64,000 nucleotides of DNA from Actinomyces wuliandei (GTDB lineage: Bacteria > Actinomycetota > Actinomycetes > Actinomycetales > Actinomycetaceae): the NCBI RefSeq assembly GCF_004010955.1, contig NZ_CP025227.1, forward strand, positions 2,542,001-2,606,000. Direction: 5' to 3'. Shown here one piece after another: positions 36,539-42,501 of this stretch. The notes below the pieces were generated by a model. That model was not told where the DNA came from and did no database searches. It saw only the letters and a list, made by a program, of their open reading frames with translations. The position numbers were made by a program, and so were the translations under genes. Position 1 is the first letter of the stretch, and each line of letters opens with the position of its first letter.

Positions 36539-38290
36539 ATGCCCGACTCCTCCCCCAGCCTCGACACTGCCTCGGCCCAGGTCGCCCCAAGAGGGGCGCT
36601 TGAGGGTCGTGAGGGTACTGACAGCCGTCGTTCCCCGCGACGCCTCCTGCGTGGCCTCGCCCGCTCACTGACATCCTGGTACCGCAGCCACCCTACCTGG
36701 GTGGACGGCGCCATCGCCGTGGCGGTCCTGCTGACCAACATCCTCATGGCCCACCTGACCCTCCATCAGTACGGGGAGTCGCTGTCCTCCGTCGCGGCCC
36801 TGGTGGCACGCTACCCCCTGGCGCTTGCCGCCTGGCTGTGCGGTGCTATGGCCCTGACCCTGCGGCGGCGTCACCCCGTGGTGGCGTGGCTGGCTCTGCT
36901 GACCCTGCTGCCCCTGTATGAGCAGCTCCTCCTGTGGGTCCACCGACCGCCTACGATCGAGGAGTTCGGGCTGGCCGCTGTCGTCATCACCATATTCGCC
37001 TGGCTAGGCGTCCCCATCACCTTGGGAACAGTCGCCGCTCGCAGCCACCCGCTGACAACCTGGACCGCCTGGGTCACGACAATGGCCGTCTTCTACCTGA
37101 CAGCAGTCTTCATTGAGGGCAACCCTGCGACCTCGGGGCAGACGCTTCAGGTGACGCTCCAGATGACACTCATCTTTCTGGTCACGGTACTGACGGGGCT
37201 GAACCTGCGCTCGGCACGCCTACGCGTCACCGAGGTGGAGGTGCGCTCCTCACGCCTGGCGCTGGCTCGCGAGCAGGAGACCCTGCTGGCTGCCTCCAAC
37301 GAGCGCAGCCGGATCGCCCGGGAGATGCACGACGTCGTCGCCCACTCCCTGGCTGTCATGATCACCATGGCTGACGGCGCGACGGCTACCATCGACCGCG
37401 ACCCGGCCACCGCTAGGAAGGCCCTGGAGACGCTGGCGGAGACCGGGCGCGGGGCACTGGCGGACACCCGCCGCCTGGTCGGCGTGCTGCGGGAGGACCC
37501 GGCGCTGACCGGGGTCGGGCAGGACACTGGTAGCCCGCCCGTCTCCGGGGATCAGCCCTCAGACCCTACCGAGGACGCCCCTGAGGTTGGCGGGGCGCTG
37601 CTCCCACCCGACCTTCACCCTGCCGAAGGAGCCGGAGACACCGAGGGCAACGACCCCGGCCCCTCCCGGAGCGCGGCAGCTAGGTCCCGGGCAGCCCGGA
37701 CGGGCACCCGGTCATCCCGCTCCCCCGAGGTGCGCGACCTGCCTGTCCCGGAGTTCGCACCTCCGGGGACCGTGGCGGCTGTCGAGCCCAGCGCCCCGAT
37801 CGCGGACCTGCGCCGGGAGGCCACCGACCACGACTCGGACTCCTCCGCAGGGGCAACCCCGCTGGCTCCGGCCCCGGAGCAGGCGGATATCGCCGGGCTG
37901 GTGGGACGCTTCCGCGCCGCTGGGGTCCCGGTGGACTACACGTGGTCTGGGGAGGCGCTGCCTGAGGACAAGGCCCTCCAGCTGACAGTGTTCCGTATCG
38001 CTCAGGAGGCCCTGACCAACATCCTGCGCTACGCTCCTACCTCACCGCGGGTGGCAGTCACCGTCGAGCGTCACACTGGCACGGCTGTCCTCACCGTGGA
38101 CAACGAGGCGGCTCCCGGAGCCCGCCCGATGCACGGCTCCGGCAAGGGCCTCATCGGCATGCGGGAGCGGGCTGCGGTCTATGGCGGGAGCGTCCAGGCC
38201 GGACCGACCGCCACGGGCTGGCGGGTCCGGGCGGTCCTGCGCTGGGACGAGAAGAACGAAGGAACACTGTCATGGCAGATGCCTCTGTGA
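36539..38290 (+). CDS. NarL-class sensor histidine kinase
   Basis: A 583-residue HisKA_3/HATPase_c kinase. About five hydrophobic segments occupy residues 50-190. The phosphoacceptor is in ERSRIAREMHDVVAHS (about 255-270). The ATPase domain has EALTNILRYAP (N-box, about 490) and GSGKGLIGMRER (G-box, about 533). Between the two catalytic parts is an unusually long, low-complexity linker of about 130 residues (about 317-450), rich in Pro, Ala, Ser and Arg, where most such kinases have only a short connection. ATG 36539 is chosen because the frame further up runs through the 28-bp hairpin. It overlaps the regulator gene by 19 nt. Confidence 0.9.
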   Translation: MPDSSPSLDTASAQVAPRGALEGREGTDSRRSPRRLLRGLARSLTSWYRSHPTWVDGAIAVAVLLTNILMAHLTLHQYGESLSSVAALVARYPLALAAWLCGAMALTLRRRHPVVAWLALLTLLPLYEQLLLWVHRPPTIEEFGLAAVVITIFAWLGVPITLGTVAARSHPLTTWTAWVTTMAVFYLTAVFIEGNPATSGQTLQVTLQMTLIFLVTVLTGLNLRSARLRVTEVEVRSSRLALAREQETLLAASNERSRIAREMHDVVAHSLAVMITMADGATATIDRDPATARKALETLAETGRGALADTRRLVGVLREDPALTGVGQDTGSPPVSGDQPSDPTEDAPEVGGALLPPDLHPAEGAGDTEGNDPGPSRSAAARSRAARTGTRSSRSPEVRDLPVPEFAPPGTVAAVEPSAPIADLRREATDHDSDSSAGATPLAPAPEQADIAGLVGRFRAAGVPVDYTWSGEALPEDKALQLTVFRIAQEALTNILRYAPTSPRVAVTVERHTGTAVLTVDNEAAPGARPMHGSGKGLIGMRERAAVYGGSVQAGPTATGWRVRAVLRWDEKNEGTLSWQMPL

Positions 38291-39021
38291 ACGACCCCGT
38301 GAGCAACCCGGCCGTATCCGGCAACGACGACGGTGCGGGTACCCCGGAGGACCCCGCACCGGTGAGCGTCCTCCTGGCTGACGACCAGTCCCTCATGCGT
38401 ATGGGCTTCCGCATGGTGCTGGACGCCGAGCCGGGTATCGACGTCATCGGTGAGGCCTCCGACGGGGCCACTGCCGTCACCCAGGCCCGGGCGCTGGGAC
38501 CCGACGTCATCCTCATGGACGTGCGCATGCCGGGGATGAACGGGATTGAGGCGACCGAGACGATCGTGCGGGAGCTCCCCGGCACCCGGATCCTGATCTT
38601 GACCACCTTCGACCTGGACGAGTACGCCTTTGCCGGGCTGCGTGCCGGAGCCTCGGGGTTCCTCCTCAAGGACACGCGTCCAGCAGACCTGGCAGCCGCC
38701 ATCCGTACGGTGGCCTCCGGCGAGGCCGTGGTCTCCCCCCGGGTCACCAGGAGGATGCTGGAGATGTTTGCCTCCTCGCTGCCGGAGGACCAGGAGAGGA
38801 CCGCCACCTCCCAGGACCCGCGCATCACCTCCCTGACCCCCCGGGAGAAGGAGATCCTGCTGCTCATGGCCCGGGGGATGTCCAACGCGGAGATCGCCGA
38901 CCATCTGGTGGTGTCCGCCACCACGGTGAAGACCCACGTCGGCAACGTGCTGACCAAGCTGGACGTGCGCGACCGGGTCCAGGCCGTCGTCCTCGCCTAC
39001 GAGTCAGGGCTCATGGCCTAG
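38272..39021 (+). CDS. NarL/LuxR-family response regulator
   Basis: A 249-residue DNA-binding partner of the upstream kinase. The receiver domain (about 25-140) contains LLADDQSLMRMGFRMVL and the phosphorylation site in PDVILMDVRMPGMNG (Asp near residue 82), then LILTTFDLDEYAF and LLKDTRPADL. The LuxR-type helix-turn-helix is LTPREKEILLLMARGMSNAE to TTVKTHVGNVLTKL (about 188-230). It probably regulates the ABC-2 exporter upstream, as is common for this layout. Its TAG stop shares four bases (CTAG) with the stop of the opposing gene. Confidence 0.93.
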   Translation: MADASVNDPVSNPAVSGNDDGAGTPEDPAPVSVLLADDQSLMRMGFRMVLDAEPGIDVIGEASDGATAVTQARALGPDVILMDVRMPGMNGIEATETIVRELPGTRILILTTFDLDEYAFAGLRAGASGFLLKDTRPADLAAAIRTVASGEAVVSPRVTRRMLEMFASSLPEDQERTATSQDPRITSLTPREKEILLLMARGMSNAEIADHLVVSATTVKTHVGNVLTKLDVRDRVQAVVLAYESGLMA

Positions 39022-39506
39022 GAGCAGGACCCGGCTCCGGCCTCCCACCGGCTGAGGCTGCCACGCTCGTCACGGCGCGGGTAACGGTCGTAGGTGTCGA
39101 TATGCACCAGCAGGTCAGCCCGTTGCAGAGCACCCAGGGAGTCCGGGGTGAACTGGACCACGACCTGGTCCTGGCGCACCGTGGCGGGCAGGGAGTCCGC
39201 CGCCCGGCAGGCATCGTCCTGGTCGTCAAACATCATGACCACAGCGGTGTCCGAGGTCACCGCCCACCGGCAGGGCAGGTCATCCACACAGGTCTGCGCC
39301 GTGGTCTCCTCCGGGTCAGGCATGAGCTCGGGGTCAAGGGTCCCCAACTCCATCGTCCACTCCGCCAGGGCATCAGCACGCTGTGCCTCGTGGCGGGCCG
39401 CCATGGCGTTGCAGCCTGCGAGACCCCCGTACAGCAGGCCCAGGACCGCCACCACGATGACGATCCCCCGGAGCTGACCCCGCAACGCGCCACGTACCGC
39501 CACCAC
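39018..39506 (-). CDS. small membrane-anchored protein, tandem paralogue 1
   Basis: About 162 residues. I do not recognise the family. One N-terminal hydrophobic segment (IVIVVAVLGLLYGGLAGC) anchors or exports it, and the rest should be outside the membrane. It shares with the next two genes TCVDDLPCRWAVTSDTAVVM, MFDDQ, CRAAD and VQFTPDSL. A conserved Cys-x(4)-Cys and a C-terminal Cys suggest disulfides. GTG 39506 is chosen because TAGGGT ends 6 nt upstream (minus strand), so it is leaderless. GTG 39512 is possible. It is the last of three tandem copies behind a secreted DUF2599 protein. Confidence 0.75.
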   Translation of the reverse strand: MVAVRGALRGQLRGIVIVVAVLGLLYGGLAGCNAMAARHEAQRADALAEWTMELGTLDPELMPDPEETTAQTCVDDLPCRWAVTSDTAVVMMFDDQDDACRAADSLPATVRQDQVVVQFTPDSLGALQRADLLVHIDTYDRYPRRDERGSLSRWEAGAGSCS

Positions 39507-39512
39507 GACCAC

Positions 39513-39518
39513 ACCCTA
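39513..39518 (-). promoter_or_regulatory. -10 hexamer TAGGGT of paralogue 1
   Basis: On the minus strand TAGGGT is followed by 6 nt and GTG 39506. Paralogue 2 has the same TAGGGTGTG sequence 8 nt before its ATG at 40001, so each copy seems to have its own duplicated promoter. Confidence 0.5.
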
Positions 39519-40001
39519 CGACGGGCAGGACTCGATGACCCAGGGAAACCAGGACAGGTCCTCGATCATGCTGTCCGGATAACGATCGTAGATGTGGAAG
39601 TGCCGCAACAGGTCGGCCCGCTCCTGCGTGGTCAGGGCACCGGGGGTGAACTGGACGGCAAGCCAGCTGCGTCGAACTGTGCCGGACAGTCTGTCTGCGG
39701 CCCGGCAGGCGTCCCTCTGGTCGTCGAACATCATGACCACCGCAGTATCTGAGGTGACCGCCCACCGGCAGGGCAGGTCCTGCGTACACGTCTGGTCCGT
39801 GGTCTCCACCGGATTGGGCATGAGCTCTGGGTTGAGCGCCCCCAGCTCCACTGCCCAGTCCGCCGGAATGTCGTCACGACGCTCCGTGTAGTGAGCCGTC
39901 ATCATGACAGCAGCCACAACACCTCCGCACAGCAGACCTAAGACCGCCACCACAATGACGATCTCCCGGACCTGGCTGCGGAACGGAGTATGTGCTGCCA
40001 T
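39516..40001 (-). CDS. small membrane-anchored protein, tandem paralogue 2
   Basis: 161 residues, unknown family. An N-terminal hydrophobic segment (EIVIVVAVLGLLCGGVVAAVM) precedes an extracytoplasmic domain sharing QDLPCRWAVTSDTAVVMMFD, DACRAADRL, VQFTPGALTTQERADLL and the C-terminal PWVIESCP pattern with its neighbours. It is clearly a duplicate of 39018-39506 and 40013-40477. The start is ATG 40001. TAGGGT lies 8 nt before it and there is no Shine-Dalgarno sequence. Paralogues 2 and 3 keep DLSWFPWVI / DNFPWII near the end, while paralogue 1 has diverged there. Confidence 0.78.
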   Translation of the reverse strand: MAAHTPFRSQVREIVIVVAVLGLLCGGVVAAVMMTAHYTERRDDIPADWAVELGALNPELMPNPVETTDQTCTQDLPCRWAVTSDTAVVMMFDDQRDACRAADRLSGTVRRSWLAVQFTPGALTTQERADLLRHFHIYDRYPDSMIEDLSWFPWVIESCPS

Positions 40002-40012
40002 GACATCACACC

Positions 40013-40477
40013 CTACGGACAGTGGCGGATGATCCAGGGGAAGTTGTCGATGGCGTCAGTGGAACGCTTGTAGCTGTCAAAGTGCACCAGCAGGTCGGTC
40101 CGTTGCTCCACACTCAAGGTGCCGGGGGTGAACTGGACGGCAAGCCAGTCGTGGCGCACCGTGTGAGGCAAGGTCTCTGCGGCTCGGCAGGCCTCCGCCT
40201 GGTCGTCGAACATCATGACGACGGCGGTGTCCGAGGTGACCGCCCACCGGCAGGGCAGGTCATCCACGCAGGTCCTCTCCGTCGTCTCCACCGGGTCAGG
40301 AAATACCTCAGAATCATAAGACCCCAGAAATATAGCCCAGTCCACCGGAATATCATCGCGGCGCTCCATCGCCACGGTACAGGCCACGAATCCGCCGAGC
40401 AGGAGGACCAGCACCACAGCCACGATCAGGACACTCCGTCCCCAGGTCTGCAACGCAGTCCGCCACTGCCCTATCAT
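40013..40477 (-). CDS. small membrane-anchored protein, tandem paralogue 3
   Basis: 154 residues, unknown family, first of the three copies in transcription order. The hydrophobic segment SVLIVAVVLVLLLGGFVAC is followed by ERRDDIPVDWAIFLGSYDSE, then the shared VDDLPCRWAVTSDTAVVM and FTPGTLSVEQRTDLLVHFDSY. The end is NFPWIIRHCP. ATG 40477 has a GGAG site 6 nt upstream. GTG 40492 in frame is the alternative. It lies 91 nt downstream of the secreted DUF2599 gene on the same strand, so co-transcription is possible. Base composition of its 5' end is more A/T-rich than the flanking genes. Confidence 0.78.
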   Translation of the reverse strand: MIGQWRTALQTWGRSVLIVAVVLVLLLGGFVACTVAMERRDDIPVDWAIFLGSYDSEVFPDPVETTERTCVDDLPCRWAVTSDTAVVMMFDDQAEACRAAETLPHTVRHDWLAVQFTPGTLSVEQRTDLLVHFDSYKRSTDAIDNFPWIIRHCP

Positions 40478-40568
40478 AATCGGCTCCTGCACCTAAAGAA
40501 CCCCTTAAGGACGGAACGACAGTATAAAGAAGTGACACCCACGGAGCACAACAGTGACATACTCCCGC

Positions 40569-41621
40569 CTACTCCCAATTACACTGGTGCTCCCACACAG
40601 CATACCACCGCGAGTTGTTAGGCCTGAACATCTCCAGATCCCAGTGAAACCCCGCACCAACAACAGGACGCCCGTAAAGAACATGGCAATTGTATTGCTG
40701 TTGAATAGTCAGTTTGTCGGCCGTCCGTGGCCTCTTGTCCACGACTTCATCCCACCCGTAGGTCATGAGGATCGTCTCCGCGCTAACTACACTGGTGTAA
40801 TATACAAATCGCCCCCAGTTAGACAGCACTACGGAGATTACCAACTGATCATTCTCCTGGCCGTCGCGGTTGTACACAGCCTCGCTGAACAGGTCGATGC
40901 CCAGCCACGGGTCCGCCACCACGGGGTAGGCGGCTCCGCCGGAGTGGTGCTCGATCACCTGGGTGACCACCACGCCGCCGGAGCTGGACTCCTCGACCTC
41001 GTAGCGGGTGGCCAGCTCGGTGCCGTTGGCGTCCTTGGCCCACGGCGGGGTCAGGCCCCCGAGGAACTCGCCCTCGGCGGAGGTGAACACCACCCCGCCG
41101 TCCTCCTCAGCCACCTCGGCAGCCGCCCCCTCAGGCAGACCCACCTGGAAGGGGTAGCGCTCGGGCGCGTCCGCGGACTCCACCATGAGGGCCACCTGGG
41201 CGGAGCCGTCCTCCTTGACCACCGCCACGGAGGTGAACCCCTGCTCGTTGGCGAAGGACACCACCCCGTCACCCACCGGCACGGCGGTCTCAGAAGTCTC
41301 AGCGTAGGGCAGGGTGAGGCTGACCTCCTTGCCCTGCTGCGAGGTCAGGTGGATCGGGGTGCTGGGGTCCTCGGAGACCACCGTGTCGGTGACGTCGGTG
41401 TCCACCGTCAGCACCTGGCTGGTGCTGGTGCTCGGCGTCACCGCCGCGACGTCGTCCAGGAGGTTCCCGCCAGGCACGGCCGCCAGGGTCTCGCGGACAG
41501 TCTCCGGGTCGGTGGCCGCAGACGCGGTCGAGGCGGGGACGACGGCGAACAGGGCGGTCACGACTGCGGCCGCCGCAGCCGTCAGGGTCGTAAGCCGTCG
41601 GTACCTGGCAGTGCGAGTCAT
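40569..41621 (-). CDS. secreted modular protein with C-terminal DUF2599 domain
   Basis: A 350-residue exported protein. A standard signal peptide (RRLTTLTAAAAAVVTALFAV, cleavage near ASA-ATD) is followed by a beta-rich backbone domain (about 45-255) that ends with the AYPVVADPW motif. In secreted actinobacterial proteins this motif often marks the junction to a variable C-terminal module. The last 60-70 residues (WDEVVDKRP, QQQYNCHVLYG, WDLEMFRPN, HQCNW) match the DUF2599 domain, function unknown. By my count 40621-40860 is about 52% G+C, while the preceding coding part is near 70%. That suggests the C-terminal module was acquired. ATG 41621 has an AGAGGGG site. Confidence 0.8.
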   Translation of the reverse strand: MTRTARYRRLTTLTAAAAAVVTALFAVVPASTASAATDPETVRETLAAVPGGNLLDDVAAVTPSTSTSQVLTVDTDVTDTVVSEDPSTPIHLTSQQGKEVSLTLPYAETSETAVPVGDGVVSFANEQGFTSVAVVKEDGSAQVALMVESADAPERYPFQVGLPEGAAAEVAEEDGGVVFTSAEGEFLGGLTPPWAKDANGTELATRYEVEESSSGGVVVTQVIEHHSGGAAYPVVADPWLGIDLFSEAVYNRDGQENDQLVISVVLSNWGRFVYYTSVVSAETILMTYGWDEVVDKRPRTADKLTIQQQYNCHVLYGRPVVGAGFHWDLEMFRPNNSRWYAVWEHQCNWE

Positions 41622-41685
41622 GCTAGGCCCCTCTTGATCGTCCCTTGTCATCGTTGACACGCGGCCCGCCACCCCGGCGAGCCGC

Positions 41686-41700
41686 TGACATGTACTGTCA
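41686..41700. promoter_or_regulatory. perfect dyad TGACATGTACTGTCA upstream of the DUF2599 gene
   Basis: TGACA and TGTCA are exact inverted repeats separated by 5 nt, 65-79 nt upstream of the secreted protein's ATG. On the minus strand TTGCCG directly precedes it. Its place in the promoter region suggests an operator; the regulator is unknown. Confidence 0.5.
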
Positions 41701-41889
41701 CGGCAACTTTATCACAGATATCGCAGAGATAACGGTGTTCCTCCGAGACTCAGCACACGTGAGCCCACTCCGCCGGGGACGTCCTCACCTCGGGCACCGG
41801 CGTCTCCACCCCAGCAGACCCGGCCCCGTGTGCGGCCGGGCCACCAGGCGCCCGCCCAGGCGTGGAGACGCGAGGGCAGCACAAGCGGG

Positions 41890-42501
41890 CTACACCTCCG
41901 GCGCCGCAGCGGGCGCGTGGAGGCGCTGCTGGGCGGCCTCCAGCCCCAGGGCCACCACCTGCTCCACGGCGTCGGCGGCCTGCTCCAGGGTCACGGCCAG
42001 GGCCTGGCGCTCACCCACAGGGACATCGCCCAGCACGTAGTCCGCCGGGTCCTGGCGCCCCGGCGGGCGCCCGATCCCCACGCGCAGCCGGGCGTAGTCC
42101 CGCGTGCCCAGGGCGGAGGAGACCGAGCGCAGGCCGTTGTGCCCGCCCTCGCCGCCGCCGCGCTTGAGCCGCAGGACGTGAGCGGGCAGGTCGAGCTCGT
42201 CGTGGACCACCAGCAGCTGGTCCGCACCCACCCCGTAGTAGTCGGCCAGCGCCTTGACCGGGCCGCCGGAGCCGTTCATCAGGGTGCCGGGCTGGGCCAG
42301 GACAGCCCGGGGTCCGGGCGCTCCCCCGGGCAGCACCCCCAGACGCACCTCGGCCACCTGGGCGCGGGCACGGTGGGAGGACAGCCGCGCCCCGGCGCGC
42401 CCGGCCAGGACGTCCACCACCATGCGCCCCACGTTGTGGCGGTTGCGGGCGTAGCGGGGGCCGGGGTTGCCCAGCCCCACCACCAGCCAGGGCGCGCTCA
42501 C
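41890..42501 (-). CDS. pth: peptidyl-tRNA hydrolase
   Basis: Pth frees peptides from prematurely released peptidyl-tRNA. It is 203 residues. The N-terminal [20 protein letters not shown] carries the catalytic His. [13 protein letters not shown] corresponds to the KPxTYMNxSG motif. VVHDELDLP and [13 protein letters not shown] are conserved substrate-binding segments. The start has a GGGGGAG site. It follows rplY by 19 nt on the same strand, and rplY-pth is a very common operon. The C-terminus ends in an Ala-rich tail. Confidence 0.95.

What the first reader, a model, noticed from the sequence alone, without database searches (positions are those of the whole stretch)
40013..41621. Secreted DUF2599 protein as a possible effector with a tandem set of immunity candidates
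Seen: signal peptide, a conserved-looking backbone ending AYPVVADPW, then a DUF2599 C-terminus in DNA of about 52% G+C (40621-40860), against near 70% in the 5' part. Three paralogous membrane-anchored small proteins follow on the same strand. Known: secreted modular proteins with swapped C-terminal modules and tandem duplicated small downstream genes are typical of polymorphic toxin loci. Inference: the C-terminal module is an antagonistic or binding effector, and one or more downstream paralogues protect against it.
Basis: partly seen in the sequence, partly recalled or inferred. Interest (0 to 1): 0.72.

Follow-up and report, generated by a model that had tools for sequence, protein, structure and literature searches.

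The report
Secreted toxin with three immunity genes
This bacterial DNA holds what looks like a secreted weapon against other bacteria, a shared delivery part with an exchangeable tip, followed by three copies of a gene that probably protects the producer; the same delivery part carries many other tips in relatives.

Summary
On the minus strand a 350-aa protein (signal peptide by eye, ~200-aa backbone ending AYPVVADPW, C-terminal DUF2599) precedes three paralogous single-pass membrane proteins. The backbone, with no Pfam or NCBIfam family, occurs in 57 of 297 genomes sampled from the order and in named Bacillota. It carries 17 C-terminal groups, including DUF4258 (3, each followed by DUF2283), EndoU-like (2, below cut-off) and many Cys-containing, bacteriocin-like peptides. 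Against G015 the backbone is 96% identical (dS 0.13), the C-terminus 58-63% (dS 1.9), the first downstream gene 74% (dS 0.76): module and downstream gene were replaced by recombination. All 34 similar downstream pairs among 119 carriers belong to carriers with similar C-termini (1.8 expected; relatedness not removed). The window-type gene lies directly behind DUF2599 in other genera, and once behind a 27-residue DUF2599 stub. The locus separates pth from a response-regulator gene that adjoin in 27 of 28 other congeners read. Toxicity and protection are untested. DUF2599 also occurs in settings that do not look like toxin loci; six carriers lack an adjacent membrane gene; the window-type gene stands alone at eight loci.

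The parts
40569..41621 (-). secreted carrier protein, 350 aa, with C-terminal DUF2599
   Evidence: ORF, Pfam, relatives
41517..41621 (-). signal peptide, residues 1-35, ending ASA (by eye)
   Evidence: sequence, hydrophobic stretch 10-28; no predictor run
40905..41516 (-). shared all-beta backbone, residues 36-239
   Evidence: profile A6 in 57 of 297 genomes; no Pfam/NCBIfam match to the window member; model of residues 30-239, pLDDT 87.6
40905..40925 (-). PVVADPW junction motif, residues 233-239
   Evidence: P, D and P of the motif invariant and A nearly so in 24 aligned backbones
40572..40904 (-). variable C-terminal module, residues 240-350; Pfam DUF2599 match at 40578-40835
   Evidence: Pfam E 3.4e-7; model pLDDT 85.8; 53% G+C
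40013..40477 (-). paralogue 1, likely immunity protein (ATG 40477 chosen by eye; the ORF list gives GTG 40492)
39516..40001 (-). paralogue 2, likely immunity protein
39018..39512 (-). paralogue 3, likely immunity protein

Best explanation
A Sec-exported polymorphic toxin locus with a small homogeneous polyimmunity array. SHOWN: a protein with a widespread conserved backbone and an exchangeable C-terminal module (here DUF2599), followed by three paralogous membrane-anchored proteins whose family recurs directly behind DUF2599 modules of this clade. INFERRED: after export the backbone serves as carrier or pro-domain; the ~111-residue DUF2599 module, joined at PVVADPW and perhaps cut off there, acts on the envelope of related bacteria; the membrane proteins, read as N-in/C-out, intercept it outside the membrane. 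The three copies may cover different DUF2599 variants. The cassette (module + immunity genes) changes by recombination behind a stable backbone. My probabilities: interbacterial toxin-immunity 0.8; extracytoplasmic action 0.6; cleavage near PVVADPW 0.5.
For: Backbone with 17 C-terminal groups, incl. DUF4258 (3 of 88, all above the Pfam cut-off) and EndoU-like (2 of 88, E 3e-5 and 1.5e-4, both just below cut-off) (L073). DUF4258 is followed by DUF2283 in 3 of 3. Small TM ORF directly downstream in 39 of 75 carriers vs 11 of 207 control ORFs, Fisher p 2e-17. 34/34 downstream-C-terminus agreement. dS 0.13 / 1.88 / 0.76 for backbone / C-terminus / paralogue 1 vs G015. C-terminus (58% by tblastn) less conserved than all 44 window ORFs with over 60% cover in G015, median 90.6%; the lowest of those 44, 61%, is paralogue 2. 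Window-type gene directly behind DUF2599 in G813, G782, G666 (carrier split there), a Propionibacteriaceae MAG and three Pseudoclavibacter; two copies in two of the latter. Orphan copy with 27-aa DUF2599 stub in G812, E 2e-10 within that locus. All 8 DUF2599 rows with this gene fall in one supported 17-row set of a 47-row tree. Empty site in 27 of 28 congeners read.
Against: No activity data. Of the DUF2599 carriers, seven whole and one split have no TM ORF directly downstream by the rule used; two of these (L237, L181) do have the window-type gene by profile, leaving L071, L072, L159, L166, L234, L241. No window-type gene was found anywhere in the genomes of L071, L072 and L159. The 17-row set also holds 5 rows with other downstream genes and 4 with none. 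DUF2599 occurs without the backbone, and without a TM gene directly downstream, in genomes of one unnamed family (f7) that I take for mycobacteria, and behind an NAD-hydrolase domain in P. aeruginosa HvnA. The window-type gene stands alone in 8 loci. Fold search gives no confident relative of either domain. Agreement of downstream and C-terminal parts can also reflect plain relatedness, which one search does not remove.
Confidence: 0.8

Rival explanations
1. DUF2599 is a binding or accessory domain (wall or glycan binding) on a secreted carrier; the paralogues are partners such as anchors or chaperones, and variation reflects surface-antigen diversification rather than toxicity.
For: DUF2599 is a C-terminal addition behind the HvnA domain and a conserved protein in a deoC-like neighbourhood (gene names recalled) in genomes I take for mycobacteria; no catalytic fold recognised.
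Against: The same backbone carries DUF4258 and EndoU-like modules with their own downstream genes; downstream genes change type with the C-terminus; stand-alone copies and a DUF2599 stub beside one copy.
Confidence: 0.13
2. The three paralogues are not immunity proteins for this module but an independently amplified membrane family that happens to lie there.
For: They occur with no DUF2599 found nearby in 8 loci; the closest other DUF2599 loci, L071 and L072, lack them.
Against: Directly 3' of DUF2599 carriers in several lineages, five of those loci (L181, L225, L235, L236, L237) not used to build the profile; similar spacing, 76-95 bp by the ORF rule, in window, G015, G813 and G782, though L225 and L235 overlap the carrier instead; clustering on the DUF2599 tree, 7 of 500 shuffles as low.
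Confidence: 0.07

Closest known systems
Polymorphic toxin systems, Sec/T2SS type (Zhang et al. 2012, PMC3482391; passages read)
   Same: signal peptide, constant N-terminal part, variable C-terminal toxin modules incl. EndoU type, adjacent immunity genes
   Different: the backbone is not among the leader domains in the Table 1 passage I saw and matches no Pfam/NCBIfam family in the window member; Pfam finds no processing protease or repeat domain in the window protein
Homogeneous polyimmunity loci (PMC3482391, passages) and tandem esaG immunity genes (PMC9484751, abstract and outline)
   Same: tandem non-identical paralogues of one immunity type
   Different: here membrane-anchored with a predicted outside part; whether this genome has a T7SS was not searched for
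DUF2599 proteins (PF10783): P. aeruginosa HvnA C-terminus (PMC3510237, one passage), family expanded in mycobacteria (PMC3388012, one table passage)
   Same: domain match; invariant Q, CH and CN in the 21 sequences aligned here (HvnA itself not aligned)
   Different: HvnA joins it to another N-terminal domain; the f7 loci read show no carrier backbone

Membership tests
polymorphic toxin system | conserved N-terminal part with different C-terminal modules | tested here: met
   17 C-terminal groups on one backbone profile
polymorphic toxin system | C-terminal modules include known toxin families | tested here: met
   DUF4258 in 3 of 88 C-termini above cut-off; EndoU_bacteria in 2 of 88, both just below cut-off; WHH in L090 not significant (E 0.16). 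That DUF4258 members act as toxins is recalled
polymorphic toxin system | adjacent gene that changes with the module | tested here: met
   34 of 34; 39/75 vs 11/207; DUF4258-DUF2283 3 of 3
polymorphic toxin system | export route | tested here: inconclusive
   signal peptide by eye and hydropathy only
polymorphic toxin system | toxicity and cognate protection | not testable with these tools
   needs experiment
homogeneous polyimmunity locus | tandem paralogues of one immunity type | tested here: met
   three in the window; two matches each in L236 and L237; immunity function itself untested
DUF2599 (PF10783) | match above curated score | tested here: met
   31.1 vs 25 bits
anti-phage defence | match to PADLOC models | tested here: not met
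   no match for the four proteins

The most novel reading that the evidence does not exclude
The 'PVVADP' backbone is an undescribed Sec-dependent carrier of interbacterial toxins and protein bacteriocins across Actinomycetota and parts of Bacillota, releasing C-terminal modules of about 45-145 residues, most with their own small immunity gene; DUF2599 is one of its toxin families, acting on the envelope, and the conserved mycobacterial DUF2599 protein is a domesticated relative.
Probability: 0.5. Interest if true: 0.82.

Novelty: new variant of a known kind. Interest (0 to 1): 0.68.

Why it matters
It offers a testable function for DUF2599, a domain of unknown function listed among the 50 Pfam categories most expanded in mycobacteria (PMC3388012, table passage), and points to a large set of candidate bacteriocins, many beside a candidate immunity gene, in Actinomyces, Corynebacterium, Cutibacterium, Streptomyces and others. 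I found no description of the backbone in print: full-text searches for DUF2599, the motif strings and polymorphic toxin or bacteriocin with actinobacterial names listed nothing that describes it by title and abstract start; most of the listed papers were not opened (among them PMC11062931 on Streptomyces umbrella toxins), and subscription papers and preprints are not held.

Tried and rejected
Phage and plasmid collections: no match to the window protein. PADLOC: none. PDB by sequence: nothing for DUF2599; best E 0.06 for the paralogues and 0.9 for the backbone, taken as chance. Foldseek: DUF2599 best E 2.1; backbone best E 1.4e-3 to a large glycosidase with TM-score 0.28, treated as no match. 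Profile-profile comparison of the Actinomyces paralogues with the L167/L170 genes: E 4e-4 but probability only 36%, two thin profiles; their kinship rests mainly on the shared pattern and position, and rows L167/L170 are in profile A7. Positive selection as the cause of the variable C-terminus: not supported, because dS is raised with dN (dN/dS 0.17), which indicates replacement; dS 1.9 is near saturation. Low G+C of C-termini as a general import sign: weak across carriers (mean difference 0.02, 65 of 119 positive), strong only here. Gene conversion among the three paralogues: shared core 67-73 of 81 nt, third positions 18-22 of 27, no clear case. One search's control is mechanical ORFs of at least 200 aa; of its 39 positives one (L158) is a doubtful ORF beyond a DUF2283 gene, and several of the 75 are split or truncated carriers or carry soluble downstream genes. 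One search's ORFs are mechanical picks too (47 picked, 44 with over 60% cover), some of them probably not genes.

Full report
Setting. The window lies in a one-contig 3.1-Mb genome. Three congener contigs have the same lengths as named records of Actinomyces succiniciruminis, A. ruminis and A. haliotis, so the genus is most likely Actinomyces. The locus occupies about 39019-41889, between a response-regulator gene (38272-39021, +) and pth (41890-42501, -).

Anatomy. The carrier (41621->40569) has a signal peptide (by eye), a backbone to residue 239 ending AYPVVADPW, and a DUF2599 module. Three paralogues follow, each with one hydrophobic segment at the N-terminus; charges around it suggest N-in/C-out, so most of each protein would face outside (inference). 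AlphaFold2 gives confident models for the module (pLDDT 85.8, two strands, helices, one strand) and the backbone (87.6, all-beta but for one N-terminal helix). Neither has a confident PDB match. Across 21 DUF2599 sequences Q, C-H and C-N are invariant; the two Cys may form a disulfide (inference).

The backbone is a polymorphic carrier. The full protein matches 7 of 49 genomes of the genus, own included, the backbone profile 24 of 213 genomes of the family and, after enlargement, 57 of 297 sampled from the order in 35 of 94 genera. A pattern scan of named genomes gave 52 loci, including Corynebacterium, Cutibacterium, Streptomyces, Arthrobacter, Lactococcus fujiensis and Lachnospiraceae MAGs; some records titled as other phyla are MAGs and may be misassigned. 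88 C-termini without DUF2599 form 16 single-linkage groups at E < 1e-3; with DUF2599 that makes 17, and remote kinship between groups is not excluded. The largest group (42) is, from the members printed, Gly/Ala-rich with Cys; 80 of 88 have at least two Cys. I dropped 3 of 91 extracted C-termini before this count (a frameshifted one, a run-on, and a partial DUF2599). Recognised modules: DUF4258 (3), EndoU-like (2, both just below cut-off), DUF6973 (1, L230); WHH in L090 is not significant.

Module and downstream gene travel together. DUF4258 is followed by DUF2283 in L073, L158 and L169 (E 6e-14, 1e-6, 2e-11). Both EndoU-like modules (L076, L178) are followed by 187-aa proteins 36% identical to each other and without a Pfam family. 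L090 is followed by DUF1963 (E 2e-13). By a fixed rule (same-strand ORF of 45-200 aa with a predicted TM, starting -60 to +150 nt) 39 of 75 carriers have a small membrane gene, 12 of 17 DUF2599 carriers among them, against 11 of 207 control ORFs. Among 119 carriers all 34 pairs with similar downstream ORFs also have similar C-termini; 1.8 expected. Relatedness is not removed from that figure, and most of the 371 C-terminus-similar pairs show no detectable downstream similarity.

The window-type gene. In the genus it is found in 4 of 49 genomes, in the order sample in 11 of 297 (profile A7 includes window, G015, G003, G004, G813 and G782 rows). Of these 14 genomes (the window's is in both), DUF2599 lies directly upstream in 5 (window, G015, G813, G782 and G666, where the carrier is split and the gene may be interrupted). 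G812 has one copy behind a 27-residue DUF2599 stub (63% identity, E 2e-10) and a second alone. G003, G004, G679, G756, G807, G819 and G839 show none in the stretch read (G003's copy starts 240 bp from a contig end; several of these are weak, E 1e-9 to 1e-18), so 8 loci stand alone. G785 (E 0.005) was not read. Among named loci, a Propionibacteriaceae MAG and three Pseudoclavibacter have it behind DUF2599, with two matches in two of them. On a tree of 47 DUF2599 domains (one near-duplicate, L236, left out; L181 and L237 labelled by their profile hits) all 8 bearing this gene lie in one supported set of 17, but not as one clade: 5 changes, 7 of 500 shuffles as low. A second type (FYxLW...) is found in 4 rows, all in another part of the tree; counting only the 16 rows with a recurring type, 4 types need 3 changes, the minimum.

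Recent history. Against G015 the backbone is 196 of 204 identical and the C-terminus 70 of 111 (58% by tblastn); paralogue 1 is 113 of 152; dS 0.13, 1.88 and 0.76; pth 0.28. So module and first immunity gene were replaced while the backbone stayed. In G015 the nucleotide alignment lacks window 41525-41854, which covers most of the intergenic region and of the signal peptide; that copy is probably silent. Of 30 congener loci returned around the response regulator (49 genomes searched), the window and G015 have no pth within reach, 27 of the other 28 have pth within 32-499 bp, and one (L295) shows no pth in reach; the remaining 19 genomes were not read. The locus is thus most simply a gain.

Against the reading. 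Six DUF2599 carriers show no adjacent immunity-like membrane gene, and no window-type gene was found in the genomes of three of them (G177, G178, G818, a search without its own positive control). DUF2599 exists in non-polymorphic settings. No step of activity has been measured. Literature: PMC3482391 passages, PMC9484751 abstract and outline, PMC3510237, PMC3388012 and PMC13098762 single passages were seen; other listed papers were seen as listings only.

Noticed in passing
L025:4897-5721 (G000:C1 about 743396-744220, outside the window): A second backbone carrier in the same genome, interrupted by a TAG stop, with a Gly-rich C-terminus of under 50 residues and a 94-aa downstream gene; an uninterrupted form exists in G015 (L024).
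   Followed up: partly
L121:2316-4346, L116, L123: In genomes of family f7, taken for mycobacteria, DUF2599 sits in L121 between a gene resembling hbhA, a small membrane gene upstream, and a deoC-like gene (names recalled), with no TM gene directly downstream by the rule: a use of the domain without the carrier.
   Followed up: partly
L097, L098, L099, L119: DUF2599 proteins without the backbone are also followed by small multi-pass membrane proteins; L119 is from another class of the phylum.
   Followed up: partly
L251, L260, L271 (Streptomyces): The backbone also forms the end part of 895-954-residue frames with bacteriocin-like C-termini and no Pfam domain above cut-off upstream.
   Followed up: partly
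L230:3607-3972: A carrier C-terminus matching DUF6973 (E 1e-14), a possible further toxin family on this backbone; record titled Parcubacteria MAG.
   Followed up: no
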